This document shows, in pieces, positions 6,106-40,282 of a stretch of 64,000 nt of DNA. Position numbers and translations under genes: made by a program. Below the pieces are notes generated by a model, which saw only the letters and a list, made by a program, of their open reading frames with translations, was not told the DNA's origin and did no database searches. The stretch's first letter is position 1; each line of letters begins with the position of its first letter. The stretch comes from Acidobacteriota bacterium (GTDB lineage Bacteria > Acidobacteriota > Thermoanaerobaculia > Multivoradales > Multivoraceae), in the NCBI GenBank assembly GCA_026707325.1, contig JAPOXA010000206.1, positions 1 to 64,000 on the forward strand. Direction: 5' to 3'.

Positions 6106-7299
6106 ATGGACACATCGATCGGCTCCGAATACGACTCCCTCCGCGAGGAGATCCGCTCCTTCCTCACCGCCAATGAGGACGTTGCCGTCCCGGCCGGTCC
6201 TGGCTTCGGCGGTGACGCATCGCAGGTCCGCGCAAGAACCCTGGAGTGGCAGAAGCGGCTCTTCGACGCCGGCTACGCCGGCCGCACGATCCCCAAGCGC
6301 TACGGCGGCGCCGGTCACGAGCCCGATGCCCTCGCCAGCCTGGTGATCGAGGAGGAGTTCCAGAACGCCGGGATCTCCCTTGGGATGGAGAACCAGGGCA
6401 CCGGAATGTTCGTCCCGACGCTGCTGCACTTCGGCCGCGAGGACCAGAAGCAGGAGCTGATCCGGCCCACGATGCGCGGCGAACTGATCTGGTGCCAGGG
6501 GTACAGCGAGCCGGGATCCGGCTCCGATCTGGCGTCGCTGCGGACCTCCGCGGTGCTCGACGGCGACGAATACGTGATCAACGGCCAGAAGATCTGGACC
6601 AGCGGCGCTCGCGAGGCCGACATGATGTTCGCCCTGATTCGCACCGAAGCGGACGCGGGAAAGCACGGCGGCATCAGCTACATCGTCCTGTCGATGGACA
6701 CCCCCGGCCTCGACGTGCGCCCGCTGATGACGATGACCGGCGACGCCTCCTTCAACGAGGTCTTCTTCACCGACGTGCGGGTGCCCGCCATGAACGTCGT
6801 CGGCCGCCCGGGTCAGGGCTGGGAGGTCGGCACCTACACCCTGCGCTTCGAGCGCAACATGCTCGGCCGCTCCAGCACGACGGAGAGCTACCTCGCCGGC
6901 TGCGTCGACATCCTGCGCGAGACCGGCCTGATCGACTCGCCCGTCTACCGGGACCGGCTGCTCAAGCTCGAGGGCCGGGTCCAGGCAATGAAGTACCACC
7001 AGTTGCGCCTCCTCACCGACAGGTTGAAGAAACGCGACTCCGGCGCCGGGGGACTCATCGTCAAGCTGAACAGCTGCCAGTTGAACTACGACGTCTGCGC
7101 CCTGGCGATCGACGCGATGGCGGAGCGCGGCGTCCTGAAGCGCGGCTCGAAGCACGTACGCGACTACGGCAACTGGCAGCGCAACTACATGTACGCCCTT
7201 GGCCTGATCATCGGCGGCGGCACCGCGCAGATACAGAAGAACATCATCGGCGAGCGGGGCCTCGGCCTGCCGCGGGAGCCGAAGCCGGCAGCGGCCTAG
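6106..7299 (+). CDS. Acyl-CoA dehydrogenase (first of a pair)
   Basis: FAD-dependent acyl-CoA dehydrogenase of 397 aa. The reading frame is open far upstream, but homology begins at the ATG at 6106 (MDTSIGSEYDS). Visible family segments are an N-terminal helical domain, the flavin-binding middle segment (QGYSEPGSGSDLASLRT and INGQKIWTSG) and a C-terminal helical domain ending in IQKNIIGERGLGLPRE. The N-terminus is of the type found in steroid side-chain or long-chain enzymes that act as heteromers with a second subunit. The second dehydrogenase gene begins 28 bp after the stop, which fits such an alpha2beta2 pair. GATAAA at 6088-6093 may be a -10 element very close to the start codon. The substrate is not determined. 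Confidence 0.9.
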   Translation: MDTSIGSEYDSLREEIRSFLTANEDVAVPAGPGFGGDASQVRARTLEWQKRLFDAGYAGRTIPKRYGGAGHEPDALASLVIEEEFQNAGISLGMENQGTGMFVPTLLHFGREDQKQELIRPTMRGELIWCQGYSEPGSGSDLASLRTSAVLDGDEYVINGQKIWTSGAREADMMFALIRTEADAGKHGGISYIVLSMDTPGLDVRPLMTMTGDASFNEVFFTDVRVPAMNVVGRPGQGWEVGTYTLRFERNMLGRSSTTESYLAGCVDILRETGLIDSPVYRDRLLKLEGRVQAMKYHQLRLLTDRLKKRDSGAGGLIVKLNSCQLNYDVCALAIDAMAERGVLKRGSKHVRDYGNWQRNYMYALGLIIGGGTAQIQKNIIGERGLGLPREPKPAAA

Positions 7300-7327
7300 C
7301 GGCCGGGGCCACAAGGAGTCCTCGAAC

Positions 7328-8380
7328 ATGGACTTTGGACTGACGCAGCCGCAGGAGCTGCTCCGAGACTCGATCGCCCGCTTTCTGGCCCAGGACGTGG
7401 GCATCGAGCGCGTCCGCCGCGCGATGGATTCGGACTCCGGCCGCGACGAAGCGATCCACGGCCAGCTCGGCGACCAGGGGATCACGGGTCTCCTGATCGA
7501 CATGGACCTCGGCGGTTCCGAACTCGGGATGCAGGAGGCGGCGATTGCCGCGCAGGAACTCGGTCGAGCCGCGGCACCCGTCAACTTCCACTCGTCCTAC
7601 GTCCTGGCGCCGCTGCTGATCGCCGGCGCCGACGCCGGCGAACGCCGAAGCGCCCTGCTCGGAGGGATCGCCGAGGGGAGGACCCTGCTCACGCCGATCC
7701 TCGACGCGCCGATCGAGAACGGCCGGATCGACGGTTCCGTGCTCTACCTGCCCGACGCCGCCTGGGCGGACGCCTTTCTGCTCGAAGACGGGGGCAGTCT
7801 GCACCTGCTCGACGCGACCACGCAAGGCATCGACGTGGAGCCCCTTCAGACCGTCGACGACACCCGCCGGGTCGCCGAAGTCACCTTCTCCGACGTCGAC
7901 CTGGGCGCGGCCCAGAACCTCGGCGGCAACTCCGACAGCACGCGGCGTGCCGTCCACGCGGCCCAGATCGCCCTCGCCGCCGACGCCCTGGGCGCCGCCC
8001 AGAAGGGGCTGCACATCGCGGTCGAGTACGCCAAGGAGCGCAAGCAGTTCGACCGCATCATCGGCTCCTTCCAGGCGGTCAAGCACATGTGCGCCGAGGT
8101 CCTCGCCGAGGTCGAGCCGGTCCAGTCCCTGCTCTGGCACACCGCCGACGCCTGGGACGGGGGATCGGACGAGATCGACCACCTCGCCCCCCTGCTCAAG
8201 GCCCACGCAACCGACGTGGCCAACCACGCCGTCACCATGACCACCCAGGTCTTCGGCGGCATCGGCTTCACCCACGAGTGCGACATGCACATCTTCTACA
8301 AGCGCGCCGGTTACGACCGGCAGATACTGGGGAACCCGACGGCGCTCAGGGAACAGGCGGCGGCGGTGATGTACGGCTGA
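7328..8380 (+). CDS. Acyl-CoA dehydrogenase (second of a pair)
   Basis: 350-aa acyl-CoA dehydrogenase family protein. An AAGGAG site precedes the ATG. The C-terminal half contains ERKQFDRIIGSFQAVKHMCAE and TTQVFGGIGFTHECDMH, both typical of the family; the N-terminal half is more divergent. It is shorter than its neighbour, as is usual for the partner subunit of heteromeric dehydrogenases in which only one subunit of the pair contributes the catalytic base. It is co-directional with the preceding gene and probably in the same operon. The damaged drmD gene starts only 22 bp downstream, so read-through from this operon into the defence island is likely. Confidence 0.87.
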   Translation: MDFGLTQPQELLRDSIARFLAQDVGIERVRRAMDSDSGRDEAIHGQLGDQGITGLLIDMDLGGSELGMQEAAIAAQELGRAAAPVNFHSSYVLAPLLIAGADAGERRSALLGGIAEGRTLLTPILDAPIENGRIDGSVLYLPDAAWADAFLLEDGGSLHLLDATTQGIDVEPLQTVDDTRRVAEVTFSDVDLGAAQNLGGNSDSTRRAVHAAQIALAADALGAAQKGLHIAVEYAKERKQFDRIIGSFQAVKHMCAEVLAEVEPVQSLLWHTADAWDGGSDEIDHLAPLLKAHATDVANHAVTMTTQVFGGIGFTHECDMHIFYKRAGYDRQILGNPTALREQAAAVMYG

Positions 8381-8402
8381 GGTTGCTGGAACCCCGCCCC
8401 GA

Positions 8403-11400
8403 ATGACGCCTCCCGAAGCCGCCTCGCCAGCCCCCGAACGCGAGCTTCCCGAAGACGACCCCGAAGTCGGTCAACTCGTCCACGTCCGCAGTCGTCGCTG
8501 GCTCGTCGAGGACGTCGAAGCCGGCGAGAAGCCCGGCCACTCCTCAGTCGTCAGCCTCGCCTGCGCCGAGGACGACGCGCAGGGCGAGGAGATCCAGGTC
8601 TTCTGGGACCACGAGATCGACCGCCGAATTCTGAAGCAGGAAGGCTGGGGCGAACTCGCCGCCAAAGGCTTCGACACGCCCCGCCGTTTCGCGGCCTTTC
8701 TGCACACGCTGCGCTGGAACTGCGTCACCGCCACCGATCCGAACCTCATGCGGCGCGAGCGCGGCTTCGGCGTCAATCCGTGGCGGACCCACAGTCGCTT
8801 TCTCGTCTCGCACAATCTGCTGCGCGACGCGACCTACGCCGACCTGATGCGCGAGTGGCTGGGGCCGGTACTGCCCGGGAGCCTGCTGATCCTCGACGAG
8901 GCCCACCACGCCGCCCCCGCGAGCGGCGGACGCTACGGCATCGAGTCGAAGTTCACCCGCGCCGTCCGCGACCTCAGCGGCCGCTTCGAGCACCGGCTCT
9001 TCCTCTCGGCGACGCCCCACAACGGCCACTCGAACAGCTTCTCAACGCTGCTCGAATTGCTGGACCCGAACCGCTTCACCCGGGGAGTCAAGGTGCGGAG
9101 AAGCTCGCTCGAAGCCGTGATGGTGCGCCGTCTGAAGGAGGACATCCGCAACGTCCAGGGTGGCTTTCCGAGGCGCCGCGTCGTACCCGTGAGGATCGAC
9201 CATCTCCCCGAGGACGCCCCCGAACTCCTGCTCTCTCGCCTGCTCGACGAGTACCGGGAAGCCCGCGAGGAACGGTTCAAGGCGGCGCCGAAGTCGGCCC
9301 GAGCCGCCTCCGGTCTGCTCGTCATCGGTCTCCAGCAGCGGCTGCTGTCTTCCATCGAGGCGTTCGCGCGCAGCCTGAAGACGCACCGCGGCACGCTCGA
9401 ACGCCGGCGCCGGAAGGCAGCGGACGCCGCTGGGCGGAGCGGCGGCCCGGACCAGTCGGAGAGATTCGCCTCCGGCTCGTGGCTAGCCGGGGACGGAGGC
9501 GACGAAGACCGCGCGGCCTTCACCGACCAAGAAGCCGAACGGGAGGAGGAGGCCCAGATCCGCGACCTGAACGCCTCGGCCGAGTCCGCCCGCGCGGCTG
9601 AACGGGCTGAGGGCGACCCCCTCAAGCGCGAGAACGACCTGCTCGATCGGATGCAGCGAATCGCCGAGCAAGCTCGCGGCAGGCCCGACGCGAAGGCCCG
9701 TGAACTCGTCGACTGGATCCGCGAGCACCTCTGCCCCGGCCTGCCGCCCCTGGGCCACGCGCGCCCCGCCGGTGCCCCGCCGCCGCGCTGGAACGACCGC
9801 CGCCTCCTCGTCTTCACCGAGAACCGGGAGGGCACGAAGCGTTACCTGCGCGCGATGCTCGACGCCGCGATCGCCTCCACCGACCGCGCGGAGGAACGGA
9901 TCGTGACGATCGACGGGCTCACTCGCGGACCCCGGCGGCGCGAGATCCAGCGCCGGTTCAACACCGACCCGCAGGAGGAGCCACTTCGCATCCTCCTGGC
10001 GACCGACGCCGCCCGCGAGGGACTGAACTTCCAGGCCCACTGCACGGACCTCTTCCACTTCGACCTGCCCTGGAATCCCGGGCGCATCGAGCAGAGGAAC
10101 GGGCGCATCGACCGCAAGCTTCAACAGGCGCCCGAGGTCCGGTGCCACTACTTCGTTCTGCCCCAGCGCGCCGAGGACCGTGTGCTCCAGGTGCTCGTCA
10201 GGAAGACGGAGACGATCAAGACCGAGCTCGGCAGCCTGTCCCAGGTCATTGACGACGCGGTGGAACGGCGCCTGACCAAGAGCGGCATCCGCCACCGCGA
10301 CGCCGGCCGACTGGCGCGTGAGATCGAAAGGGCCGACATCGACGCTGAGCGCCGGCGCCTGGTCAACGAAGAACTCGAGGCCGCGCGCGAACGCCGGGAC
10401 GACCTGAAGGGCCAGATCGCGCGCTGCCGTGACCTCCTGCAGCGATCCCGCCACTGGGTTCAGTTCGAGGAGAACGCCTTCCGCGACGCCCTGTCCTGTT
10501 CGCTCGAAATCGCCGGCGCGGCGCCCTTGCAGCGAACACGGAGCGAGGACGGCGGTGACGTCTGGACCTTCCCCGTTCTGGACGGTCAGACCAACGCCGA
10601 CCCGAGCTGGGCCGGCACGCTCGACTCCTTACGCCGGCCCCGACGCCGCAACCAGAAGCTCACCGAGTGGCGCAAGGAGGTACCGCCGCGCCCCGTCGTA
10701 TTCGAGGATCCCGGCATCCTCACCGACGACACGGTTCACCTTCATCTCGAACAGCGGGTCGCGCAGCGTCTGCTCGCCCGTTTCCGCTCCCAGGGCTTCG
10801 TGCACCACGACCTCTCGCGCGCCTGCCTTGCCCAATCCGCGGATTCGATTCCCCGCGTCGTGTTACTCGGCCGGCTGACGCTCTACGGCTGGCGCGCCGA
10901 ACGGCTGCACGAGGAGTATCGTGACGGCCGCGGCCCGATGGGTCGAACCGGGGCGCCGCGGCGCCCCGCTCGCCGCTTACGCGCGCGACGCGGAGATCCG
11001 CGCCCTCGACCTGCTGGAGCAGTCGCTCGTACGCACCGGCGGACGCCCGGTGAACGATGTCGTAGTCCGCCGACTGCTCGGCTCGGCGCCGCGAGATGCA
11101 GACGAACTCCGGCCCCAGCTCGAAGCCCGCGCCCACGCGATGGAGGAAACGGCGACCGATCGGCTGCGAGAGCGCGGCGAGCGCGAGAGCCGGGAACTCA
11201 GGGAAACCCTGGAACGCCAGCGCAGCCACGTCGGCAGGGAGCTGGAGCAGCGCGAATCGACGCTCAGGCAGCGGACCCTGGCCTTCAGCCAAGCCGAAGA
11301 ACGACAACTCCTGGCCGACATGAACTCCTGGCGCCGCTGCCTGGACCAGTTCGACCGCGATCTGGACCGAGAGCCCCGCCGCGTGCGCGACTTCTACGAG

Positions 11401-11463
11401 GTCCGCGCCGTGCCGCCGGTCGAGCCACTTGGCATCGTCTACCTTTGGCCCGAGACGAACTGA
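8403..11463 (+). pseudogene. drmD: drmD: DISARM SNF2-like helicase, with internal deletion and frameshift
   Basis: Class 1 DISARM SNF2-family helicase. The N-terminal domain (about residues 20-112) is followed directly by a segment that normally lies after helicase motifs I and Ia: NPNLM at 113-116 runs into RRERGFGVNPW. The piece that should carry Walker A (DDVGLGKT in relatives) is missing; I judge about 95-110 residues lost, in frame. Later motifs are present: DEAH at 165-168, LSATPHNGHSNSF, and the helicase C-terminal segment with ATDAAREGLNFQ and NGRIDR. Near 10917-10919 one extra base breaks the frame after HEE. The downstream frame (10921-11463) continues with VTAAARWVEPG and a coiled-coil-rich C-terminus. 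As written, the protein cannot bind ATP normally and is truncated, unless these are assembly errors. Confidence 0.8.
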
Positions 11464-11504
11464 TCTCGCCTGGCTCGAGTCCCCTGCGCTCCCTGCCGTA
11501 GCCC

Positions 11505-14013
11505 ATGGCCCGACCGAACGCGAACACGCTCGCCCACCTCGAGTGGCTCGGCTTCGTTCAGCCGATCGGGCTTGTGGTTTCGGCCCCGGCGCTGGACAAG
11601 GCCGGCGTCGTGCTGCAGCGAAGCGACCGGGAAGGTCAGCAGCGCCTGCAAGCAGCGGTCGAAGAGCGGCGGTTCAGGGAAGGCGAGGCGCCAAGGCCCT
11701 TCCTGCCCGACTTCGAGAAGTTCGCCCGTTCCGTGCTTGGCTGGAAGTTCTCGCCCAAGGGCTACGCCGGCGGCCCCGGCGCCTCGCTGTCGGACGAACT
11801 GAGCCTCCACCTACCGGACTACGGTGAGACCCTGCGCCCGGACTTCGCGGTCCGTGAGCGCGAACCGGAGGAGGGCGGATCGGCTTGGCAACTGCTGGTG
11901 CGAACCCTTGAGACCGGCCACGACTTCGATCGAATCGCCGCGGACGCCGGCCGGCTGGAAGCCTCGCCCCACAGCCGGCTGGAACGCCTGCTCCGGGCGA
12001 AGAACGTCCCCGCCGGCCTGCTCTTCAACGGTCGCTCCCTTCGACTGGTCTCGGCCCCGCGCGGCGAGAGTTCCGGCTGGATGGACTTCCGCGTCGCCGA
12101 CATGCTGCTGCCGGCCGGCCGGCCGATCTGCACCGCGCTACGACTGCTACTGAACGAGCGCCGGTTGCTGGCTCTGCCCAGAACTCAGCGACTCGCCGCC
12201 CTGCTCACCGACAGCCGGAAGTATCAGAACGAGGTCAGCGAGAAGCTCGCCGTTCCTGGGCGGCAGCCGAATCTCCACGGTTCTCGGTACGAGCTACCGC
12301 GACTGGCTGCCGCAGCTACACGCCGAGAGCCACGGCAACGCAGACCTCGTGGCCCACTTCTTCCGCTGCGGCTTCGGACGACTCCGCGAGGGCGGCGCGC
12401 TCGGCCTGATCGCCACGAACACGATCGCGCAGGGCGACACGAGGTCGACCGGGCTGCGGTGGATCTGCACGAATGGCGGCGAGCTCTACCGGGCCGAAAG
12501 GCGGTTCAAGTGGCCGGGGCTTGCCGCCGTCGTCGTCAGCATCGTTCACATTCGTCGCGGGCGGCTATCCGGCCGCCAGGGTCGACCCGAGGAAGCGGGT
12601 TCGGAGTTCACGCCAACGTGCCTTGAGGGTGCGGAAAGCGGCGGCGGAATGCTGGATGGCGCGGAGGTTCCTCTAATCACCGCGTTCCTTTACCACCGGG
12701 GCGGCCACTCAGATCCCGCCCGCCTATCGGCGAACGAAGGCAAGGGGTTCATGAGCAGCAAGATCTATGGAGCGGGCTTCACATTCGACGACAAGGACAC
12801 TCGCGGCGTCGCATCGCCGCTTGCGGAGATGCACCGCTTGGTCGAGGCGGAGCCCCGCAACCGGGACGTCATTTCTCCCTACATCGGTGGTGCAGAACTC
12901 AACACCAGCCCTACACACGCGCACCACCGCCACGTCATCGACTATCGGGACTGGCCGCTGCGCCGGGAACTGGTGCAAGCGCACTTGCCAACACGCACCG
13001 GGGGTTCCGCCGCGCTGAGGCACTGGGAACGGACTGCGCACCGGGTGCGAACGTCTGTTCACGTGGATCTACCAACCCACGGCGAAAGCACGCCGGAGGG
13101 AGCCAGCGAGTCGCCGCGGCCGCCTGACCGGGACCGTTCGAAGGCCACTTCCGCGCAAGGGACCGCGGCCACACCCTGGAGTGACGCGAACGACGAACAA
13201 CGGCGGAGGTGGCTGCGGAGCGGCATTGTGCCGGGCGACTACCCGGGCCCCGTCGCTGCCGACTGGCCCGCACTGCTCCAGATCGTCGAGCAGCGGGTCA
13301 AGCCCGAGCGACTCGGAAACCGACGCGAAACTCGCCGTCGGCGCTGGTGGCTGTTCGGAGACCGGCAGCCGGCGCTGTTTGCCGCCATCGCAGAGCTCGA
13401 CCGGGTCCTCGCCATCTCCAGTGTCGGCCAGCACGCCGCCTTCGCCTTTCTCCCATCGCGGATGGTCTTCAGCCACGCGCTCACCGTCTTCGCTCTCTCA
13501 ACGCACGCGGCGTTCTGCGCCCTCCAAGCCCGCCCGCACGAGCTCTGGGCCCGCTTCTTCGGCTCGTCTCTGGAAGAACGACTCCGCTACAACTCGTCAG
13601 ACTGCTTCGACACCTTCCCCTTCCCCGACAACTGGGAAGCCCGCACCGACCTCGAGGCCGCCGGCAAGACCTACAACGAGCACCGCACGGTCCTGATGAT
13701 CGAGAACGACGAGGGGATGACGAAGACCTACAACCGCTTCCACGACCCGGCCGAGACCGGCCCCACGATCCAGCGCCTCCGCGACCTCCACGCCGCCATG
13801 GACCGCACCGTCCTCACCGCCTACGGCTGGAACGACATCCCCACCGACTGCGAGTTCCTCCTCGACTACGAGATCGACGAAGAAGCCCGGGGCAACAAGA
13901 AGAAGCCCTACCGCTACCGCTGGCCCGACGAAGTCCGCGACGAGGTCCTCGCCCGACTGCTGGAACTCAACGCCCAGCGGGCAGCGGCGGAGGAGCAGAC
14001 CAACCTGACATGA
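11505..14013 (+). pseudogene. drmMI: drmMI: DISARM adenine-N6 methyltransferase, with core deletion
   Basis: Class 1 DISARM DNA methyltransferase in two pieces. The first (11505 to about 12249, 248 residues) is the N-terminal domain, from HLEWLGFVQPIGLVVSAPAL to SRKYQNEVSEKLA. The second begins in the next frame at about 12250 with PFLGGSRISTVLGTSYRDW and continues to 14013 (587 residues). It includes GLIATNTIAQGDTR, THAHHRHVIDY and a conserved C-terminus (GNKKKPYRYRWPDEVRDEV). PFLGG should be preceded by NP of the NPPF catalytic motif. Both that NP and the upstream SAM-binding motif are gone, together with what I estimate as several hundred residues. Because the join changes frame, translation from 11505 leaves the real frame and stops at 12626. 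A restart at the GTG at 12349 would give only a C-terminal fragment. Confidence 0.78.
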
Positions 14014-14026
14014 CCTGGCCATCACC

Positions 14027-14051
14027 GCGAGAGCGCCCACAGTGCTCTCGC
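14027..14051. other. Hairpin between drmMI and the next gene
   Basis: A perfect 8-bp stem (GCGAGAGC / GCTCTCGC) with a 9-nt loop lies 13 bp after the drmMI stop and 24 bp before the next start codon. There is no T-tract after it. It may be a processing site or an attenuator that separates the inserted genes from drmMI. Its function is not shown by the sequence. Confidence 0.35.
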
Positions 14052-14075
14052 ACGCAGCCATAGGAACGCCGCTCA

Positions 14076-14834
14076 ATGTTCATGGACGCCCTTTGGGTGG
14101 CCTACAACATACCCAGGCTCTATCTCCCTCCGGTCGAGGCCTACCGCGCGGCCGCTCTGACGAAGGTACTCCCCATCTTCGACGACCTTGAGCAGGAAGC
14201 GGACGCCGTCGCCGAGGCAGAGTTCGAGCGCCTCTGCACCCAGCCAGCCACGCCTGACTTCCACGGCGGTCTCAGCGACTTGGCAGAGCGGGCCACAGAG
14301 TACGGCCAAGAGTACGGCGAGACGATGTTCGCCATCCGCCAGAGTGTGTTGAACCTGCTCGCCGCCGGCCTGCACCACCTGTTCGAGCAGCAACAGAAGG
14401 GCCTCTTCTACCAGACCGTGGCCGCTCGAACGGGAACGGAGTACCGCTGGAAGACGCTCAAACCCAGCCTGCTTGCGTCAGGAGTGGTTTGGACGAGACT
14501 CCCCGGGGCAGCGAGTCTGGAAGAACTCAGGCTCGCCGCGAACACGATCAAGCACGGCGCGGGAGACTCGGCCGCCGAACTCGCGGCGGTCAGGCCAGAT
14601 CTCTTCGGCCTCGACCCGGACGGCAATCGAGAGACAGATGTCGAAAGGCAGAGGCTAGGCGCCGCGATGCAGGCATCCGACCTGCTCTTCGCCCCGCTGG
14701 GCGGGGGCGACCTCCACGTAGCCGAGAGAGACCTGGCCGACTGGTGCGATGCCGTCCTGCAGTTCTGGCGCGGACTAGCAGCGGCGCTTCGAAAGCTGCA
14801 TTCTCCCGAGTCCGAGCTTCCCTTCGACCATTGA
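14076..14834 (+). CDS. Unknown 252-aa protein inside the DISARM cluster
   Basis: I do not recognise this gene with certainty. It is a soluble, mostly helical, acidic protein without signal peptide or membrane segment. The middle has RQSVLNLLAAGLHHLFEQQQ. Near residue 150 it has the most distinctive stretch, ELRLAANTIKHGAGDSA followed by RPDLF, which resembles a set of hypothetical proteins that may have HEPN-like folds. That is a memory-based resemblance only, and no RxxxxH RNase motif stands out. Two ATGs are possible (14076 and 14082). The gene sits between drmMI and drmA, where class 1 DISARM clusters usually have nothing, so it may be an accessory gene or a separate defence gene that inserted here. 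Confidence 0.6.
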   Translation: MFMDALWVAYNIPRLYLPPVEAYRAAALTKVLPIFDDLEQEADAVAEAEFERLCTQPATPDFHGGLSDLAERATEYGQEYGETMFAIRQSVLNLLAAGLHHLFEQQQKGLFYQTVAARTGTEYRWKTLKPSLLASGVVWTRLPGAASLEELRLAANTIKHGAGDSAAELAAVRPDLFGLDPDGNRETDVERQRLGAAMQASDLLFAPLGGGDLHVAERDLADWCDAVLQFWRGLAAALRKLHSPESELPFDH

Positions 14835-15126
14835 GGACTCCGGGGGACTCCGCGGTTGCTTTCCTCGGACCGCGACGCCCTTCGACACCTACGGCACGCC
14901 GGGCACGGCGCGCCTCAGCGACCTGAGGTGTTGATGATCGGTCCTGCGAGGAGCCAAGCAGCGGCCCCGAAACGGCTAGACTCGACCCCATGACAGGGCC
15001 TTGCCAGCCACTCACTGGCCCGCGCATGGCCGAATCACCCGCCCGAGTCGCGGATACGAGGCGAACCTCGCGAAGCGCGGCGCCTGATCGCCAGCCCAAC
15101 CCCTGCATCCGGCCGGGAGGCACGCC
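14835..15126 (+). other. Intergenic segment with hairpin and possible promoter
   Basis: 292 bp separate the unknown gene from the AAA ATPase, the largest gap in the island. It holds a 6-bp hairpin (CCTCAG / CTGAGG, 14913-14928) and a TAGACT sequence (14977-14982) just upstream of an ATG at 14990. That ATG opens a 46-codon frame that ends by overlapping the TTG start of the ATPase. No clear -35 element is seen. The segment fits a separate transcription unit for the ATPase/TOPRIM pair. The 46-codon frame is weak evidence for a peptide. Confidence 0.3.
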
Positions 15127-16335
15127 TTGACGACCGACGGCCGCCTGCTGACGCGGGTCGTTCTCCGCAACTACAAGAGCATTCCCGCGTGCGACGTGTC
15201 GCCGCCGAAGCTCTGCTTTCTGGTCGGCCCCAACGGCTCGGGAAAGAGCAACTTCCTCGACGCCCTGAGACTCGTCTCCGATTCCCTCCAGCACTCACTC
15301 GATCACGCGCTTCGGGACCGAGGAGGAACGCACGAAGTGCGGCGACGCTCCAGCGGACACCCCACCCATTTCGGGATTCGGCTGGAGTTCGAGATCGACG
15401 ACGCCATGGGGCACTTCGCGTTCGAGGTCGGCGCGATGCGAAACGGCGGCTACCGGGTGCAGCAGGAGGAGTGCAGGATCGTCGATGCCGCCAACGAAGA
15501 GCACTTCTATCAGATCGTGAACGGCGAAGTTCGCCGTTCGACCTTCGCTCCCTCCCCCCCTGCTTCGGCTGCTCGCCTCTACCTCTTGGTGGCGTCGAGC
15601 TACCCGCCATTCCGCGCCGTCTACGAAGCGCTCTCCGCTCTCGGCTTCTACAACCTGAACCCCCAAGCGATCCGCACTCCTCAGCCACCCGACCCGGGCG
15701 AGATACTGAAGCGCGACGGCAGCAACATCGCCAGCGTCGTTTCGCATCTCGCGTCGCAGGCGCCGGAACTCAAGGAGCGAGTGGAGGACTATCTGAGCGC
15801 CATCGTGCCTGGCCTGGAGCGGGTCGATTTCCGCAATGTCGGTCACCTGGAGACCCTAGAGTTCAGGCAGAAGGTCCGCGGCGCCAAGCACGCTTGGCGG
15901 TTCTACGCGGGCAACATGTCCGACGGCACGCTGAGAGCTCTCGGGGTCCTTGTCGCGCTACTGCACGCGGGCGCCAACGGTTCGGCACCGACCCGCCTCG
16001 TCGGAATCGAAGAACCTGAGGTCGCCTTGCATCCGGCCGCCTCGGAAGTTCTGGTGGACGCCATCAGGGACGCATCGGAGCGCACCCAGATCCTCGTGAC
16101 CAGCCACAGCCCGGACCTGTTGGACCACATCGGGGCGGACACTGACCTTTTGCTCGCCGTTGAAGCGGTCAACGGCGAGACCCGCATCGAGCCCCTCCAT
16201 GAAACGAGTCGGAGCGCCCTCAGCGAACGCTTGTTCACGCCGGGGGAACTCCTCCGCATGGACCGCCTGAATCCGCGGGGCGCCTTGTTCGGCAGTGACC
16301 CGATGCAGATCAGCCTGTTCGGCGCTGCGCGCTGA
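15127..16335 (+). CDS. AAA family ATPase (AAA_21/OLD-like), defence-associated
   Basis: 402-aa ATPase of the ABC/SMC-like AAA class seen in bacterial defence modules. Walker A is GPNGSGKS (residues 34-41), just after an LRNYKSI opening typical of these proteins. Walker B is in LVGIEEPEVALHP, followed by the HSPDLL switch histidine segment. The start is TTG with a GGGAGG site 8 bp upstream, chosen because homology begins within ten residues. The next gene starts 4 bp after the stop and encodes a DUF4276 protein. Such ATPase/TOPRIM-type pairs are common anti-phage units in which the ATPase senses and the partner is the effector. The specific trigger is unknown. The gene looks intact, in contrast to the neighbouring DISARM enzymes. 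Confidence 0.83.
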   Translation: MTTDGRLLTRVVLRNYKSIPACDVSPPKLCFLVGPNGSGKSNFLDALRLVSDSLQHSLDHALRDRGGTHEVRRRSSGHPTHFGIRLEFEIDDAMGHFAFEVGAMRNGGYRVQQEECRIVDAANEEHFYQIVNGEVRRSTFAPSPPASAARLYLLVASSYPPFRAVYEALSALGFYNLNPQAIRTPQPPDPGEILKRDGSNIASVVSHLASQAPELKERVEDYLSAIVPGLERVDFRNVGHLETLEFRQKVRGAKHAWRFYAGNMSDGTLRALGVLVALLHAGANGSAPTRLVGIEEPEVALHPAASEVLVDAIRDASERTQILVTSHSPDLLDHIGADTDLLLAVEAVNGETRIEPLHETSRSALSERLFTPGELLRMDRLNPRGALFGSDPMQISLFGAAR

Positions 16336-16339
16336 TTCC

Positions 16340-16939
16340 GTGCTCCGCATCGCAACGATCGTCGAGGGCCGGGGAGAGGTAGCTGCGCTTCCAAAGCTCC
16401 TGGGCCGGATCGCGAATCGCGTGGCGCCGGGCCTGCGTCTGGCGCTGCCACGCCCGCTCCGGGTGGCCCGCAACAGAATCCTGAAGCCGGGAGAACTGGA
16501 GCGGTACATCAGGATGGCGGCCGCCGACGCCGGCGTGAACGGCTGCATTCTCATACTCCTCGACGCGGACCGCGACTGCCCAGCGGAACTCGCGGCAGAG
16601 ATCCTCGAGCGAGCGACGACGGAGCGGGCGGACCTGCGGATCCGGGCCGTGGCGGCGAATCCAGAGTACGAGTCGTGGTTTCTCGCCGCGATTGAGTCAG
16701 TCGCCTCTCACCTTGGCACAGCGGCCACTCGGCCTGACGATCCCGAGTCCATACGGGACGCCAAGGGATGGCTCAGTTCCTCGATGCCAACCGGCAGGAA
16801 GTACCGACCGACGATCCATCAAGCCCGCTTCACCGCCGCCCTTGACCTCGACGCCGCGAGGTCGGCGCCATCGTTCGACAAGCTGTGGCGCGACGTAGCC
16901 TCTCTGCTCGTTTCACCGCCCGTGAGCAAATCCGAGTGA
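16340..16939 (+). CDS. DUF4276 family protein, TOPRIM-like, partner of the AAA ATPase
   Basis: 199-aa protein starting at the GTG at 16340. The family pattern is clear: an N-terminal IVEGRGEVAALPKLLGRI with the conserved Glu of a TOPRIM-like fold (residues 8-11), a central LILLDADRDCPAEL with Asp residues that would bind metal, then ANPEYESWFLAAIES. These three blocks suggest a metal-dependent nuclease or related effector, by analogy with OLD-family TOPRIM domains. That function is an inference, not established for this gene. It overlaps the drmA start by 4 bp (GTGA), so it is translationally coupled to DISARM even though it is not a standard DISARM component. Confidence 0.78.
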   Translation: MLRIATIVEGRGEVAALPKLLGRIANRVAPGLRLALPRPLRVARNRILKPGELERYIRMAAADAGVNGCILILLDADRDCPAELAAEILERATTERADLRIRAVAANPEYESWFLAAIESVASHLGTAATRPDDPESIRDAKGWLSSSMPTGRKYRPTIHQARFTAALDLDAARSAPSFDKLWRDVASLLVSPPVSKSE

Positions 16940-19679
16940 GCGAACCGAAGAGCCAGAACGCCGCGGCGCTGACGTCCCTGGATGTCCGCCAACGGTTGGT
17001 CGAGGCCATCGAACTCGACCTGATCGGGCCCGCAGCCGGCGATGAGCTCGCCGAGGAGAGCCTGCCTGCCTACGAAGCGCCGTCCAATTGGTACCTCACC
17101 GGGTTCCTGATTCCGTCCGGTACGCCGCCGGAAGCGATCGCCGAGCACGACGAGCAGGAGGACCGCGGGCCGGACGAAACGCCCGGGCGGCCAGGTCTCT
17201 CCGAAGAAACCACCGAAGACCGGATGGCTGCGAAGAAGCTCTTCTTCCCTTCGTCCATGGGGCTGAGCTTCCTTGCGGCCGCGGAGGGCCGGCTGGAAGT
17301 CACGATCAGATGGGGGGACTACGAACTCGCGGGCTCAGGCTTCGAAGCAGCCGAGGCGGCCAACAGCACAGGAGACGGCGCGCACGAAGACGGCGAGAGG
17401 CGCTGGCAACGAAGAGCCCGTCAGGAGACGGTCCGCGTCACGCTCGGAGCGGCGGAGTCATCGGAGCACGAGGTGCCTGGTTCCAACGGGTTGCGGCTAC
17501 AGGTCGAACAGAGGCCGGTTGTCGGCGTCTCTTCGATCCCCGAGAGCACTCAGGCGGTCAGCCTGTTCCTCGTGAACAACCGGGCACCGGCGACGGCTCT
17601 CCAGGACGCGGAAGCGACCTACGTCTTCCAGGCCGGGCTGGAGGTCCGGGGTGAGAGACCCTTCGTGCCGCGGCCCGACCCGCGCTCCCCCGACGGCGAG
17701 GACTGGGACGAGCAAATCGCCGCCCTGCACTACCTGGACACGCCGAGTTACGCCACGGGCCACAACGTGAGCGTTACGTGGGACCTTGCCGCGGACGGAA
17801 GCTGCCACGCGCTCCGCACGACCTGGCTGCCGCAAGCGGAAGTCGAGAAGACGGAGACCTTCGAGCCAGATGGCGTCGACCTGTCGATGGACCGGCTCGG
17901 CGAACTCGTAGACGCTGCCGACGCGGAGGTGACGTTACGGCCGCTCGTCGGCGCCTACCAAGAGTGGATCGACGTCCGGCGGCTCGGCCTAGCGGACTTG
18001 CCCGCACCGCACTCCGAAACCGCCGCCGAGCTGCTGGACTAGGCCGCATTCGCCGTGTCCAGGCTGGAACGGGGCATCGACGCCCTGAGCCGCGACGAGC
18101 AGGCGCTCGACGCGTTCCGGGTGGCCAATCGCGCCGTGGCGGAAGCTCTGCGTCGTCGGAATCCGAGAGTCTTCCGGAAGGAGGTGCCCAAATGGCGGGC
18201 GTTCCAGCTCGCCTTCATCCTGCTCAACCTGGCGCCGCTCGCCAATCCGGAGGACCTTCACCGCGAGGTGGTCGATCTGCTCTTCTTCCCCACCGGCGGC
18301 GGCAAGACGGAGGCCTACCTGGGCCTGGCCGCCTTCGCCATCGTGCTGAGGCGTCTCCGCAACCCGCTGGAGAATGGGCGGGCAGGCGCCGGGGTGTCCG
18401 TCATCATGCGCTACACGCTGAGGCTCCTTACGCTCGATCAACTGGCGCGCGCCGCGGGCCTCGTCTGCGCCCTGGAACTGGAGCGGAGCCGGGCGCCCCA
18501 ACGCTACGGCGAGTGGCCCTTCGAGATCGGGCTGTGGGTCGGCAGGGCGGCGACGCCGAACCACATGGGACGAAAGGGCGCCGAACCGCCGGGTTCCGCT
18601 CGCCAGAAGGTGCGACGCTTCAAGGCAAAGCCCCGCTACGAACCGTCGCCGATCCCCATCGAAGACTGCCCCTGGTGCGGCACGAAGTTCAAGGCCGAGT
18701 CATTCGATCTACAACCCGACTCCGACGCCCCAAAGAACCTGCGGGTAGTCTGCGCGAACTGGGAGGCGCCCGGCGTATCGTCGAGGAGGAGGTCCAGAAC
18801 ACACTGGGCCGCTACGGCGCGAGACGCTGGCTGAACCAGGAACGGAGGCACTTCCGCGACCGCGGCCATCTCTACGAGCCACTTGAACTCACCTCCAGGG
18901 TCTCCACCGCCGACGTCGCCCGCGCGCGGAGGCGGCTCGCCCAGCCATTTCACCAGGACGACCGGGTCGATGTGGCCCTCGCGACGAACATGATCTCCGT
19001 CGGCCTCGACATCCAGAGGCTCGGGCTGATGGTTGTCATGGGCCAACCGAAGACGACCGCCGAGTACATTCAGGCAACGAGCCGAGTGGGTCGCGACGAC
19101 GCGAAGCCCGGTCTTGTCATCACGCTGCTCAACGCGCACAAGCCGCGCGACCGCTCCCACTACGAACGCTTCCGGCACTACCACGAGACGTTCTACCGCG
19201 CCGTCGAGGCAGGAAGCGTGACCCCGTTCGCCGCCCGGGCTCTCGACCGGGGAATGGCCGGCGCCCTGGTCGGCCTCGCCCGGCACGCTGAGCCCGCTCT
19301 GACGCTCGCCACCGGCCCGACCGCGCTCGAGCAGGTTCGCTCAGGGCTTGAACGTCTCCTGGTCGACGCGTTCTCTGAACGGGTTGGCCGTCAGCACCTG
19401 CCGGAGGAGGAGCGGGACGAGAGGCTTCACGGTATCCACAAGCGGGTCGGCGACCTGCTCGACTCCTGGCTTCACGTCGTAGCCGACTACCAGGCCTCCG
19501 GCGTCCAGGTGAAGTACCAGCAGCATGAACGGGCGCAAGGCAAACCACTGCTCCGCGAGATGCTGGACGACGACTTCGAAACGCCGCACCACGAGAAGCT
19601 CCGCGCCAACCGCTCGCTACGCGACGTGGAGCCCCAGGTCAATCTGTTCGTGCCGGGCCCGACCGGCGGTGCCGGATGA
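16936..19679 (+). pseudogene. drmA: drmA: DISARM helicase, with amber codon and DEAH-region deletion
   Basis: DISARM core helicase. The start is GTG at 16936, overlapping the previous stop; SLDVRQRLVEAIELDLIGP and NWYLTGFLIP are typical of its N-terminus. An in-frame TAG at 18040-18042 follows ETAAELLD, and the same frame continues with AAFAVSRLERGIDAL, so a Gln codon (CAG) probably became TAG. Walker A (FPTGGGKTEAYLGLA) is at about 18286-18330. After NLRVVCAN (18738-18759) the protein jumps, with a frame change, to SLRELGGARRIVEEEV. The DEAH motif and the following segment, perhaps 250 residues, are absent. The last part (about 18746-19679) is intact, with NMISVGLDIQRLGL and EYIQATSRVGR. The stop overlaps drmB by ATGA. 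Confidence 0.82.
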
Positions 19680-21523
19680 TGGCCCGGCGGAAGGGGCCCG
19701 GAAGACCCACCGGCAGCGTCCGCCGAAGTCAGGTGATCACGACCTACGGGCCGGGCGCGCTGATAGACCTGCCCCATGACTCGGCGATCATCGGTGGACT
19801 GGACCTCTGGCCGGCGCCCCACGTTCTCGAACGGGTTGACGAGCCGCGACTTGCCGCCCGGTTGGGCGGTCTGACAGGCGGCGCGCCTCCTGCGCTCCAT
19901 GTGCCGCCCGCGGCTTCCGACCGGCCCGGCGATGTCTCGGACGGCATCACCTCACCGCGGTTCCCCGAGTGGTTTCTCGTGCAGAAGGAAGAGTCTTCGC
20001 CGGATGGGGACGGCAGTCGCCGCTCACGACGACTGGTCCACCGCCAAGGGCTCGACAACCGGCGCAAGCACAGGAGCCTGGCTTACGGCGGCCAACCGGT
20101 GGTCGCCACCCGCTTCGTTCGGGGCTGCCCGCGCGGCCACGTCGACGACATCGACTGGTGGAGCTTCGTCCACCGAGGCCCCTCTCTGTGTCGTGGGGAG
20201 CTGCAACTCGAGGAACGGGGCGCCGGCGGCGACCTCTCGAACCTGTTCGTTCGCTGCAGTTGCGGCAAGTGGCGAGGTCTGCACGAAGCGAAGGAGATCG
20301 ACGATCAGCCGCTCGGCACCTGCAGTGGTGCCAGACCGTGGCTCGGCCCAAACGCCAACGAGGCCTGCGACCAACCAGCCCGCCTCCTGATCCGCACCGC
20401 CACGAACGCGTGGTTTCCGCAGATCCTGACCGTGCTGTCCCTACCGAAGAGGGCCGAGGCGATCGACGATGTCGTCGCCGGGCTGTGGGACGACCTGGAG
20501 ATCGTCGATGAGCCGGTCGAACTCCGGTTCCCAAAGAGGAAGACTCGGGTCGCGGCGGCGCTGCACGGCTATGACGACGCCGAAGTCTTCGCCGCCATCG
20601 AGCGCCGGAAGGCGGGCGCCCCGGACGACCGGCCAGTCAAGCTGGCCGAACTGGACGCCCTGCTCAAGGCGCCGGAGGGATACGGCGACGACGTGCCAGT
20701 CGATCAACGCTTCCACGCCCGGAGGCTCCCGGAGCAGGCGTGGAAGCGGGCCGCCGGGTCCTTCGAAGACCGGGTCGAGGCCGTCGTGCAGGTCCACCGG
20801 CTGCGCGAAGTCTCCGCCCTCACCGGATTCTCCCGATTCGAGGCGCCGACGCCGGACATTCTGGGCGAAGCCGACACGAACGTGGAAAGCGCGGCCCTGG
20901 CCCTTGAGCCTTCCTGGTTTCCGGCGGTCGAGAACCAGGGTGAGGGCTTGTTCCTCCAGCTTCCGGCGGACGCCGTGGCGGAATGGCTGGAGCGCCGGGA
21001 GGTCAGGGAACGCTGCGAGACCCTTGCCGCGGGCCACGACCGCCGCGAGGAGGAACGACCGACAAGCGCGAAACGCCGCCTGTTCCCAGGCGGCGCCTAC
21101 GTCCTTCTCCACACGTTGTCTCATCTGCTGATCCAGTCGCTCGCGCTACGCTGTGGCTATCCGGCTGCCTCGCTCCGGGAGCGTGTCTACGTCGATGACG
21201 AAGCCGAACGCTTCGGGCTCCTTCTCTACACCGCGAGCCCGGACGCCGAAGGCACCTTGGGCGGCCTGGTACAGCAGGCCCGGCACATCGCCGAGCACCT
21301 GCGCCACGCGCTCCGCCTTGGCCAACTCTGCTCGAACGATCCGATCTGCGCCCACCACCGGCCCGACCAGAGCGCCGAGAAGCGCTGGCTGCACGGCGCC
21401 GCCTGTCACGGCTGCACGCTGGTGGCTGAGACTTCCTGCGAGATGCGGAACGACTACCTCGACCGAGGCCTCGTCGTGCCGATCATCGGCGGCGACGCCG
21501 GCTTCTTCGACAGAGTCGAATGA
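19676..21523 (+). CDS. drmB: drmB: DISARM DUF1998 protein
   Basis: 615-aa protein that partners the DrmA helicase in DISARM. The N-terminus RRSQVITTYGPGALIDL is the family hallmark. A Cys-containing central stretch (about residues 150-240, with RGCPRGHV and RCSCGKW) fits metal binding. The C-terminal DUF1998 region carries HTLSHLLIQSLALRCGYPA, then CSNDPICAHH and CHGCTLVAETSCEMRNDYLDR, with several Cys/His likely to bind zinc. Length and all conserved blocks look complete, unlike drmD, drmMI and drmA. Translation is coupled to drmA by a 4-bp overlap. Without a working helicase partner its present role is uncertain. Confidence 0.9.
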   Translation: MMARRKGPGRPTGSVRRSQVITTYGPGALIDLPHDSAIIGGLDLWPAPHVLERVDEPRLAARLGGLTGGAPPALHVPPAASDRPGDVSDGITSPRFPEWFLVQKEESSPDGDGSRRSRRLVHRQGLDNRRKHRSLAYGGQPVVATRFVRGCPRGHVDDIDWWSFVHRGPSLCRGELQLEERGAGGDLSNLFVRCSCGKWRGLHEAKEIDDQPLGTCSGARPWLGPNANEACDQPARLLIRTATNAWFPQILTVLSLPKRAEAIDDVVAGLWDDLEIVDEPVELRFPKRKTRVAAALHGYDDAEVFAAIERRKAGAPDDRPVKLAELDALLKAPEGYGDDVPVDQRFHARRLPEQAWKRAAGSFEDRVEAVVQVHRLREVSALTGFSRFEAPTPDILGEADTNVESAALALEPSWFPAVENQGEGLFLQLPADAVAEWLERREVRERCETLAAGHDRREEERPTSAKRRLFPGGAYVLLHTLSHLLIQSLALRCGYPAASLRERVYVDDEAERFGLLLYTASPDAEGTLGGLVQQARHIAEHLRHALRLGQLCSNDPICAHHRPDQSAEKRWLHGAACHGCTLVAETSCEMRNDYLDRGLVVPIIGGDAGFFDRVE

Positions 21524-21617
21524 GCGTGGCGCCACACCGGCGGAACCGCAAGCGATCGGGCACACCGGGGCCCAGTGCCCTCACGGCAGAGCCAGCCCGC
21601 CCGTGCTCCGGTCCGCG

Positions 21618-22415
21618 ATGAACCCACAGGTGATCGAGGCCCTGGTCGGCCTTCCAGCCCATGTCAGACACTCGCTGGCGACCGCCCTCGAAGCCGGTCT
21701 GCTCCGCCTGGAGTCCACGCCGACCGCGCTGCGCGCCAACCTGTCCCTCGGCCACGACCGGACAGAGGACGTCCTCGGCCTGTTCGCCGGGTGGCGACAA
21801 GCCGGCGTCTCCGAGTCCGTGGCCGCGGCCTGGCTACGGAGCCTGGAACAGCTCGCCGATAGCTTCTCCAGCCCCGACCTCGTGTGGTCCGGCCCTGAGG
21901 TTCCCGGCCTTCACGCCCGGGACACACGGCGTGTCTACAACGAGGTGATCGGTGCGGCGTCTCGATCGATATGGGCGTCTACGTACGCATTCTTCGACGG
22001 GGAACGCGCCTTCAAGGTTCTGGCCGAGAAGATCGACGCGCGGCCCAGCCTCGATGTCACACTGCTCCTGAACATCCACCGCGGACGCGGCGTCACCACC
22101 GCCGCGGATCACCTGGTTCGTAGCTTCGCAGACAGCTTCTGGAAGCAAGAGTGGCCCGGAACCTCGCGCCCTGCCGTCTTCTACGACCCGCGCTCGGTCG
22201 CGACGGGAGGTCCCGAAGGCGTCCTCCACGCGAAGGGAGTCGTGGCGGACGAAGAGGTCGTCTTCATCACCTCCGCGAACTTCACGGAGGCCGCCCTCGA
22301 CCGCAACATCGAGATGGGCTTGCTGCACCGCGACCGCCACCTCGCCTTGACGGTAGTCAGGCACTTCCAGACGCTGATCGACCGGAAGCGGCTTCTTCCT
22401 TTGCCGATGGAGTGA
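21618..22415 (+). CDS. drmC: drmC: DISARM phospholipase D-like protein
   Basis: 265-aa PLD-superfamily protein, the last gene of the DISARM cluster. One HKD motif is clear: H204, K206 and D211 in LHAKGVVAD, followed by SANFTEAALDRNIEMG with the conserved Asn and Glu. A single motif is normal for DrmC, which would work as a dimer. In characterised DISARM systems this gene is dispensable for defence. The ATG at 21618 is preferred, but a GTG at 21603 in the same frame is possible. It is 94 bp after drmB, and its stop is 3 bp from that of the convergent outer-membrane protein gene, so this marks the right edge of the island. Confidence 0.87.
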   Translation: MNPQVIEALVGLPAHVRHSLATALEAGLLRLESTPTALRANLSLGHDRTEDVLGLFAGWRQAGVSESVAAAWLRSLEQLADSFSSPDLVWSGPEVPGLHARDTRRVYNEVIGAASRSIWASTYAFFDGERAFKVLAEKIDARPSLDVTLLLNIHRGRGVTTAADHLVRSFADSFWKQEWPGTSRPAVFYDPRSVATGGPEGVLHAKGVVADEEVVFITSANFTEAALDRNIEMGLLHRDRHLALTVVRHFQTLIDRKRLLPLPME

Positions 22416-22418
22416 GGC

Positions 22419-38369: not shown

Positions 38370-40142
38370 TCAGGCGCCGACACGCAGGGTCCGCGTGACG
38401 AAGGAAGTTGCTCCGGCAACCTCGTCCCGCACCGCCACCGTCAGGCGCTGGTCGCCCTCCTTCATGATCAACGGCAGCGTGTACGTGTAATAGCTCTCCA
38501 TGGCGCGTTCCAGGTCTTCGGCCGGGATCGTGAGTTCGAACGGCTCGACCTGGGGCGGGGAGATGTCGCCGTTCGATGCCAGCGCCTGCACCCAGATCCG
38601 GGCGCGCAGGAGATGATGGCCCTCGGTCCCCACGGGCACCAGGGTCATCTCGCCGATCGGAACCTGGACGTCGACGTGAACCGTGTAGAGCCCCCGCTCT
38701 TCGCGGCGAATCTCGTCCGCCTTGATCAGCGAGATCTCCAGGTCGTTCTTCTCGTAGCCGAGCTTGAGCGCCGCCAGCGTGCCTTCGGTCATTTCCGTGT
38801 CGACCGACTTGTCGCGGTAGCTCTCGCGGTGGCGGACGAAGCGCTCACGCTTGAGGCCGAGCCGTTCCTGCGCCTCCTTCGTGAGGTCGACATCGATGTT
38901 GTACTTCCGGCCCGTGCCCGCGTGACCCGGCTGGAAGCCGAGCGAGTAGTAGCTGGCGAAGTCGAGGGCGATCCGGTTCAGACCGTCCCGGAAGTTGTTC
39001 GTGTTGACGATGTACTGCCCGCCGGTCTCCTCGGCCATGTACATGACGGAAGAGTGCATGTTGTCCCGGGCGACGGAGTCGATGTTCGACGAGAAGGCCA
39101 TCCCCTGCATCGAGGCGTCGCGGGAGTTGATGCCCATCGGCCCCGAGGCGTCGACGGTGTAGAACGAGACCTCATTCGCGTTGGCCGTGTCGACGAGGTC
39201 GGTGAAACGCCGGCTCGAGTCGTACTGCAGCGAGTCGAGGAAGAAGTTCTGGTTGTACTCGATCGAGTCGACGGAGCGGCCGCGCTGGTCCAGCGCCTCC
39301 CACATGTCCGCGCCGGCCCTCATCGGCAGCCCGTCCGAGACGTAGAGGAAGGCCTTGCGGCCCGGCATGCCCGCCAGCGAGATGACGCTGTCCTTCAGTC
39401 CGTCGAGCGTGAACTGCATGTCGTTGTAAATCTGCTGCGAGTAGATCCGCACGCGCCCCTGCACGAAGTGGTAGTCGCGATCTTCCTCGCCGATGTCGCG
39501 GATCAGATCGGCCCGGTCCGAGTCCCACATCGTCCGGCCGCCGGTGTGCTTCTCCAGGTCGTAGAGCGCGTTGGCAATCATCTGGGGGTCGCTCGTGAAC
39601 TCACGCTCCACCTTCACCGAACGGTTGAAGGTCAGGAGCATGACGCGGTCGTCGCGGGTCACGTGCTGGCGCAGGAACTCCCGGACGTAGCGGAAGAAGC
39701 GGTTCCGGTTCTGGGGGCGGATGTTGTGGTGGTCGACGTAGATCACCAGGTTCAGGCGCTCGTCCTCGGGCACGACGTAGTTCCGGCGCGCAAGCCCGGG
39801 CCGGTCGATGATGTGCTGCTCCGGCTCGCCCGGCACCAGGCCGGCAACCGCGCCGACCTTGACCCGCTCGTGGACCTCGTAGAAGTTCGTGATCGGTACC
39901 GGACGCTTCTGCTCAAGCAGGACGAAGTCGTCCTTCGTCAGACCGGTCACGGGGTTGCCGTCCCGGTCGCGGACGAAGACCTGGACATTGATCACCTTGA
40001 CGTGGACCGTGTCCTCGAACGTGGCGCCGGGCGGCCTGGACGGCGTCTCCTGGGCGCCAAGGGAAAGCGGAGCGATCAGCATCCACCCGGCAAGCCGTGC
40101 CAGAGCGAACGCGGGCGATCGGAATGAGAGCGTTCCAGTCAT
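38370..40142 (-). CDS. VWFA-domain protein of the acidobacterial type
   Basis: 590-aa exported protein. The ATG at 40142 gives a signal peptide (residues 1-30, ending SLGAQET). Then VKVINVQVFVRDRDGNPVTGLTKDDFVLLE, cited here only as a region at about 45-75, is the start of the acidobacterial VWFA-related domain. The VWA domain follows with NLVIYVDHHN in place of a DxSxS MIDAS motif, so metal binding may be lost or altered. The last third is a beta-rich domain. The family is abundant in Acidobacteriota, which supports the taxonomic reading. A TATAAT sequence lies only 10 bp upstream of the start. The function of the family is not known. Confidence 0.85.
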   Translation of the reverse strand: MTGTLSFRSPAFALARLAGWMLIAPLSLGAQETPSRPPGATFEDTVHVKVINVQVFVRDRDGNPVTGLTKDDFVLLEQKRPVPITNFYEVHERVKVGAVAGLVPGEPEQHIIDRPGLARRNYVVPEDERLNLVIYVDHHNIRPQNRNRFFRYVREFLRQHVTRDDRVMLLTFNRSVKVEREFTSDPQMIANALYDLEKHTGGRTMWDSDRADLIRDIGEEDRDYHFVQGRVRIYSQQIYNDMQFTLDGLKDSVISLAGMPGRKAFLYVSDGLPMRAGADMWEALDQRGRSVDSIEYNQNFFLDSLQYDSSRRFTDLVDTANANEVSFYTVDASGPMGINSRDASMQGMAFSSNIDSVARDNMHSSVMYMAEETGGQYIVNTNNFRDGLNRIALDFASYYSLGFQPGHAGTGRKYNIDVDLTKEAQERLGLKRERFVRHRESYRDKSVDTEMTEGTLAALKLGYEKNDLEISLIKADEIRREERGLYTVHVDVQVPIGEMTLVPVGTEGHHLLRARIWVQALASNGDISPPQVEPFELTIPAEDLERAMESYYTYTLPLIMKEGDQRLTVAVRDEVAGATSFVTRTLRVGA

Positions 40143-40151
40143 GGAAGGTCG

Positions 40152-40157
40152 ATTATA
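40152..40157 (-). promoter_or_regulatory. TATAAT -10 element for the VWFA gene
   Basis: A perfect TATAAT on the minus strand lies 9 bases before the ATG at 40142. Transcription starting 6-8 bases after it would begin almost at the start codon, giving a leaderless or nearly leaderless mRNA. No convincing -35 element is seen at 16-18 bp. Confidence 0.45.
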
Positions 40158-40178
40158 AGGGACCAGTCCGGCAGAACC

Positions 40179-40204
40179 CGCCTGACGCGTCCTCGCGTCA
40201 GGCG
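40179..40204 (-). terminator. Terminator-like hairpin after the lgt-thiD pair
   Basis: A perfect 11-bp stem (40179-40189 with 40194-40204) and a TCCT loop, 78 bp after the thiD stop and upstream of the VWFA promoter. It probably ends the lgt-thiD transcript. Confidence 0.6.
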
Positions 40205-40282
40205 CGTACGGGTTCCGACGACCGGCCGCGGGCGGCGGAACGGCACCCCGGCGCCGGCCGCGGCATTCCCTACGCTTCGCAT

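What the first reader, a model, noticed from the sequence alone, without database searches (positions are those of the whole stretch)
8736..8763. drmD: in-frame loss of helicase motif I
TDPNLM runs directly into RRERGFGVNPW at about residue 116. In relatives roughly 95-110 residues, with DDVGLGKT, lie between these blocks. The rest of the helicase (DEAH, SAT, motif VI) is preserved.
Basis: partly seen in the sequence, partly recalled or inferred. Interest (0 to 1): 0.55.

Follow-up and report, generated by a model that had tools for sequence, protein, structure and literature searches.

The report
Decaying second copy of DISARM defence
A bacterial anti-phage gene here has lost the piece that binds ATP, but this is one of several recent breaks in a spare defence system that appears to be falling apart, not a new kind of enzyme.

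Summary
At 8747/8748 drmD lacks 282 bp (94 codons, in frame) that 78 of 80 fetched DrmD loci carry; in 77 of 80 it holds an unbroken motif I. "The rest is preserved" holds only to residue 838: a one-base insertion at 10917 puts the last 181 DrmD codons out of frame. Three more breaks lie in the operon: drmMI lost a net 2.0 kb including its NPPF motif region, drmA has a nonsense codon and a 691-bp deletion through its DELH and STAT motifs. Of 32 flanking genes compared, 25 are intact by rule, one runs off the window, six differ only at their ends. The genome holds a second DISARM locus with drmD, drmMI, drmA and drmB each in one open frame. Other genomes of the genus hold copies broken elsewhere. 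Substitutions in drmD still show strong purifying selection, so the damage is recent, or, less likely, an assembly error. Best explanation: recent decay of a redundant class 1 DISARM island in an acidobacterial genus. A functional ATPase-free DrmD is unlikely.

The parts
8383..22417 (.). DISARM island; in G059 the same site is empty (window 8382 and 22418 are 8 bp apart there)
8403..11501 (+). drmD ORF, 1032 aa; in the DrmD frame only to 10916
8747..8748 (+). junction of the 282-bp in-frame deletion that removes motif I; at most 1 nt of microhomology against L038 (by eye)
10917..10917 (+). one-base insertion relative to G063, G061 and G062; frame shifts
10918..11463 (+). drmD C-terminal 181 codons and stop, out of frame with the rest
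11505..12253 (+). drmMI N-terminal part
12241..12304 (+). region of the drmMI deletion junction (net 2024 bp against G061 and G062); frame changes; about 5-6 nt shared at the edges (by eye)
12250..14013 (+). drmMI C-terminal part (ORF 12349-14013), includes MmeI-type TRD
14076..14834 (+). 252-aa ORF, no family found in Pfam or PADLOC
15127..16335 (+). HEC-01A AAA ATPase, no lesion found, embedded between drmMI and drmA
16340..16939 (+). HEC-01B (DUF4276), no lesion found, embedded
16936..18765 (+). drmA N-terminal part, with GGGKT
18040..18042 (+). in-frame TAG in drmA where G061 and G062 read CAG
18747..18766 (+). junction of the 691-bp drmA deletion that removes the DELH and STAT motifs; frame changes; about 12 nt similar (7 identical) at both edges, by eye
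18747..19679 (+). drmA C-terminal part
19676..21523 (+). drmB, full length, no lesion found
21630..22415 (+). drmC (PLD nuclease), no lesion found; start approximate

Best explanation
This is a recently inactivated, redundant class 1 DISARM island. A 282-bp deletion removed motif I from drmD, so any product could not bind ATP (inferred from helicase knowledge). Four further lesions broke drmD, drmMI and drmA. The locus sits in a site that is empty in G059 and occupied in other genomes, and the same genome keeps another DISARM locus whose drmD, drmMI, drmA and drmB are each in one open frame. Redundancy (inferred) relaxed selection, and small deletions, an insertion and a nonsense change are dismantling the copy. 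Shown: the lesions in this assembly, the second locus, the empty site, the substitution pattern. Inferred: loss of function, redundancy as the cause, and that the assembly is right.
For: Five lesions in drmD, drmMI and drmA and no internal one found in 32 flanking genes compared; the chance that all five fall in the island by position alone is about 0.0002 (three genes) to 0.0013 (whole island) (rough). Second locus G000:C146 with the four genes each in one frame without stops. Copies broken at other places in G051_C74, G063_C166, G062_C6 and G052_C156. drmD core, window branch: 63 synonymous and 10 nonsynonymous changes, pN/pS 0.053; G063 branch 0.058. The part behind the frameshift: 6 synonymous, 0 nonsynonymous. 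At most about 10% of the branch can have been neutral.
Against: The 282-bp deletion is in frame and the substitutions look constrained, as a working variant or a wrongly assembled intact gene would also show. G051 has another in-frame drmD deletion in one open frame. drmB, drmC and HEC-01A/B show no lesion here. G063 has a broken copy, and no second whole locus was seen in it among the listed matches (capped lists), so redundancy is not the whole story. No reads or transcripts were available; the genome is a 209-contig draft.
Confidence: 0.87

Rival explanations
1. Assembly error or strain mixture: the missing pieces exist in the organism and were dropped by the assembler.
For: Draft genome of 209 contigs. 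Substitutions show no decay yet, as for an intact gene. The site varies between genomes, where assembly is harder (inference).
Against: By eye the junctions share only about 1 to 7 exact bases, less than usual assembly words (k of 21 or more, recalled), so reads across them should exist. The only long match to the missing 282 bp in the genome is the paralogue on C146, 82% identical over 267 bases; the next is 54 bases. No internal lesion found in the flanks. Similar relics occur in G062, an assembly of about 10 contigs.
Confidence: 0.1
2. A functional DrmD variant without ATPase, acting as a DNA-binding or scaffold subunit.
For: The deletion is in frame; low pN/pS on the branch; G051 carries another in-frame deletion of the motor domain.
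Against: The frame breaks again at 10917; the C-terminal part behind it shows the same constraint though it is no longer read in that frame, so the constraint predates the damage. drmMI and drmA are broken in the same operon, and in G051_C74 as well. None of the 80 fetched relatives shares the short form.
Confidence: 0.03

Closest known systems
Class 1 DISARM (drmD, drmMI, drmA, drmB, drmC)
   Same: All five genes are recognised by PADLOC profiles or by relatives in the same order; drmD is called the class I marker, an SNF2-like helicase, in PMC7205518 (passages).
   Different: drmD, drmMI and drmA are each broken; DrmD lacks motif I and DrmA the DELH and STAT motifs.
DISARM locus G000:C146 of the same genome
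   Same: Same drm genes; drmD 64%, drmMI 54%, drmA 59%, drmB 55% identical to the G061/G062 reference proteins.
   Different: drmD, drmMI, drmA and drmB are each in one frame without stops; no HEC-01 match above 42% identity there; its PLD gene matches in two frames.
DISARM locus G063:C166 / L038
   Same: drmD about 88-92% identical at DNA level, same chromosomal site.
   Different: Keeps motif I; has its own 4-base deletion near the drmD start, a drmMI match ending at residue 366 and a frame change in drmA.
HEC-01 (HEC-01A ATPase plus HEC-01B DUF4276)
   Same: Both genes are full length between drmMI and drmA.
   Different: Here embedded in DISARM; PMC12988326 (one passage) speaks of HECs as Hma-embedded candidates.

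Membership tests
Class 1 DISARM | drmA and drmB core genes present | tested here: met
   PADLOC DrmA and DrmB hits; core named in PMC9142583 passages
Class 1 DISARM | drmD marker gene present | tested here: met
   PDLC02621, 717 bits; marker status from PMC7205518 passage
Class 1 DISARM | drmMI methyltransferase present | tested here: met
   PDLC02640 on both halves
Class 1 DISARM | drmD, drmMI and drmA unbroken (needed for a working system) | tested here: not met
   five lesions
SNF2-type helicase DrmD, active | motif I (Walker A, GxGKT) | tested here: not met
   282 bp absent; 77 of 80 fetched relatives have G.GKT
SNF2-type helicase DrmD, active | motifs II, III and VI, C-terminal helicase domain | tested here: met
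   Helicase_C hit; DEAH, SAT and motif VI read in the ORF (motif names recalled)
Class 1 DISARM | phage restriction activity | not testable with these tools
   needs cloning and plaque assay

The most novel reading that the evidence does not exclude
The island is being rebuilt module by module: where a second DISARM is present, the DISARM motor and methylase genes are shed by internal deletion while the embedded HEC-01 pair is kept and exchanged on its own. The HEC-01 pair is full length without stops in the three decaying copies that hold it (window, G051_C74, G063_C166). In G061 a HEC-01A gene stands at the same chromosomal site with no drm match above 42% identity, as an end stage would look. 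Against it: in the whole DISARM copy of G061 (1.30 Mb) HEC-01B matches only over residues 156-199 of 199, so HEC-01 can break too, and the lesions are too few for significance.
Probability: 0.17. Interest if true: 0.45.

Novelty: new member of a known kind. Interest (0 to 1): 0.2.

Why it matters
It removes a candidate for an ATPase-free DrmD. It also warns that a strong profile hit (717 bits here) can name a probably dead locus DISARM. The genus offers whole, freshly broken, half-deleted and relic copies side by side, a natural series for asking how immune systems are lost when a second copy is present.

Tried and rejected
Rejected: ATPase-free functional DrmD (second frameshift, broken partners). 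Kept at 0.1: assembly artefact. No tRNA in 5000-26000 and no repeats within either island edge to mark an integration site; the two edges were not compared with each other. No structure was predicted: loss of motif I does not need a model.

Searches for print (PMC open library only, listings): 'DISARM, DrmD, helicase' (6 papers), 'sponge symbiont, DISARM', 'anti-phage defence, pseudogene, decay, DISARM' (12 of 24 listed), 'Multivorans thiocomprendens' (none), 'hma-embedded', 'DISARM, SNF2, drmMI' (10 of 23 listed), 'defense systems, sponge, symbionts, pseudogen, DISARM'. No listed title names DISARM decay in this group. Passages were seen of PMC9142583, PMC12458937, PMC7205518 and PMC12988326; of the others only the listing.

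Slips in my own work: one search used a wrong frame for G061 and G062 in the drmD core (redone; only the drmD C-terminal rows are used). One search stopped with an error at drmA, where a frame was also wrong (that row discarded). One search used a wrong motif pattern (redone). One search crashed after its alignment table (redone). In one search the row 'drmA Cpart' (w 0.929) is in a wrong frame and is discarded for 'Cpart2'. One search kept only matches above 42% identity.

Full report
Observation. The ORF 8403-11501 (1032 aa) is a DrmD by profile (PDLC02621, 717 bits); that model matches at positions 10-112 up to 8750 and 206-868 from 8748 on. G061 and G062 also carry 282 more. The window junction is 8747/8748. 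The missing 94 residues hold DDTGLGKT, motif I.

How unusual the loss is. Of 80 DrmD loci fetched (the best 80 of 149 relatives), 78 align over the whole segment and 77 carry G.GKT: 71 DDTGLGKT, 5 DDVGLGKT, 1 DDTGVGKT. L095 reads DDTGLGET. L103 lacks reference residues about 127-264 (its two pieces lie in different frames), and L109 matches only from residue 309. None shows the window's short form.

The rest of the gene and operon. A one-base insertion at 10917 puts the last 181 DrmD codons in another frame. drmMI has lost a net 2024 bp, with a frame change; its right edge falls in the NPPF motif region. drmA has TAG at 18040-18042 where G061 and G062 read CAG, and a 691-bp deletion with frame change that takes the DELH and STAT motifs. 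drmB (19676-21523), drmC, HEC-01A (15127-16335) and HEC-01B (16340-16939) show no lesion. [quoted passage not shown] a DrmA this broken should therefore leave no working DISARM (inference).

Control. Of 43 gene models in G059:C9:1-64000, 32 had an orthologue of 75% identity or more in the window and 11 did not (they lie before or beyond the stretch that matches the window). Of the 32, 25 were intact by rule. One is cut by the window end. In four the stop or mismatch lies in an N-terminal stretch upstream of the gene proper: the acyl-CoA dehydrogenase (stop at residue 117, first Pfam domain from 336), a VWA-like gene (stop at 52 of 860, but the window has an open ORF 38370-40286 of 638 aa), and two where I read the start from the alignment. 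In two the stop lies at the C-terminal end: residue 335 of 340 in a PhoH-like protein (domain ends at 319) and residue 145 of 163 in a PIN-domain protein (domain ends at 138). So I count no internal break in the flanks, but the gene models are my own, and 48.7-53.2 kb has no counterpart in G059 and was not tested.

Selection. In the drmD core (682 codons) the window branch has 63 synonymous and 10 nonsynonymous changes (pN/pS 0.053), the G063 branch 60.5 and 10.5 (0.058). The part behind the frameshift: 6 and 0. Pairwise w for the two drmA parts against G061 is 0.21 and 0.18. With 10 observed, at most about 18 nonsynonymous changes are compatible, so at most about 10% of the branch was neutral. 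The genes were in use until recently; the lesions are young. An assembly error would give the same pattern, which is why reads are the decisive test.

Genome context. The island 8383-22417 lies in a site that in G059 is 8 bp long. The same genome has another DISARM on C146 with drmD, drmMI, drmA and drmB each in one frame without stops. Among 17 stretches examined in the genus, drmD is whole in 7 (G000_C146, G051_C80, G056_C10, G055_C115, G061 twice, G062_C2), broken or relic in 4 (the window, G051_C74, G063_C166, G052_C156), and not found in 6 (some of these are only contig parts). G061 and G062 supplied the reference proteins, so their wholeness there is partly by choice. In the G061 copy at 1.30 Mb, HEC-01B and drmC match only in part. 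G051 and the window's genome each pair a broken copy with a whole one; G062 pairs a whole copy with a relic on C6; G061 has two copies with whole drmD, drmMI, drmA and drmB; G063 has a broken copy. G056_C10 has a frame change in drmMI. So redundancy fits but is not the whole story.

Organism. The nearest named relative belongs to Acidobacteriota, Thermoanaerobaculia, Ca. Multivoraceae. That this genus lives in sponges is recalled, not from a call.

Verdict. Ordinary: most likely recent pseudogene decay of a redundant defence island. A deletion is in frame by chance one time in three and this needs no function.

Noticed in passing
G051_C74 (L143) 6349-7836: Another drmD with an in-frame deletion: it keeps GLGKT and then jumps to the C-terminal third, one open frame of 495 aa; drmMI and drmA beside it are broken.
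   Followed up: partly
L095: DrmD of a Gemmatimonadetes MAG reads DDTGLGET at motif I; its first residues match in a separate piece.
   Followed up: no
window 15142-17326: The stretch with the HEC-01 pair is only about 66% identical to L038, whereas drmD is about 92%, so this cargo seems to be exchanged apart from the DISARM backbone.
   Followed up: partly
L138 12906-15998: In G061 the region after drmMI holds an IetA/IetS pair, another embedded defence system.
   Followed up: no
L038 5901-9978: About 4.1 kb between the acyl-CoA dehydrogenase and drmD in L038 encode another DrmD-profile helicase and a second protein on the other strand; the window has no match to them there.
   Followed up: no
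window 14076-14834: 252-aa ORF without any family match in Pfam or PADLOC.
   Followed up: no
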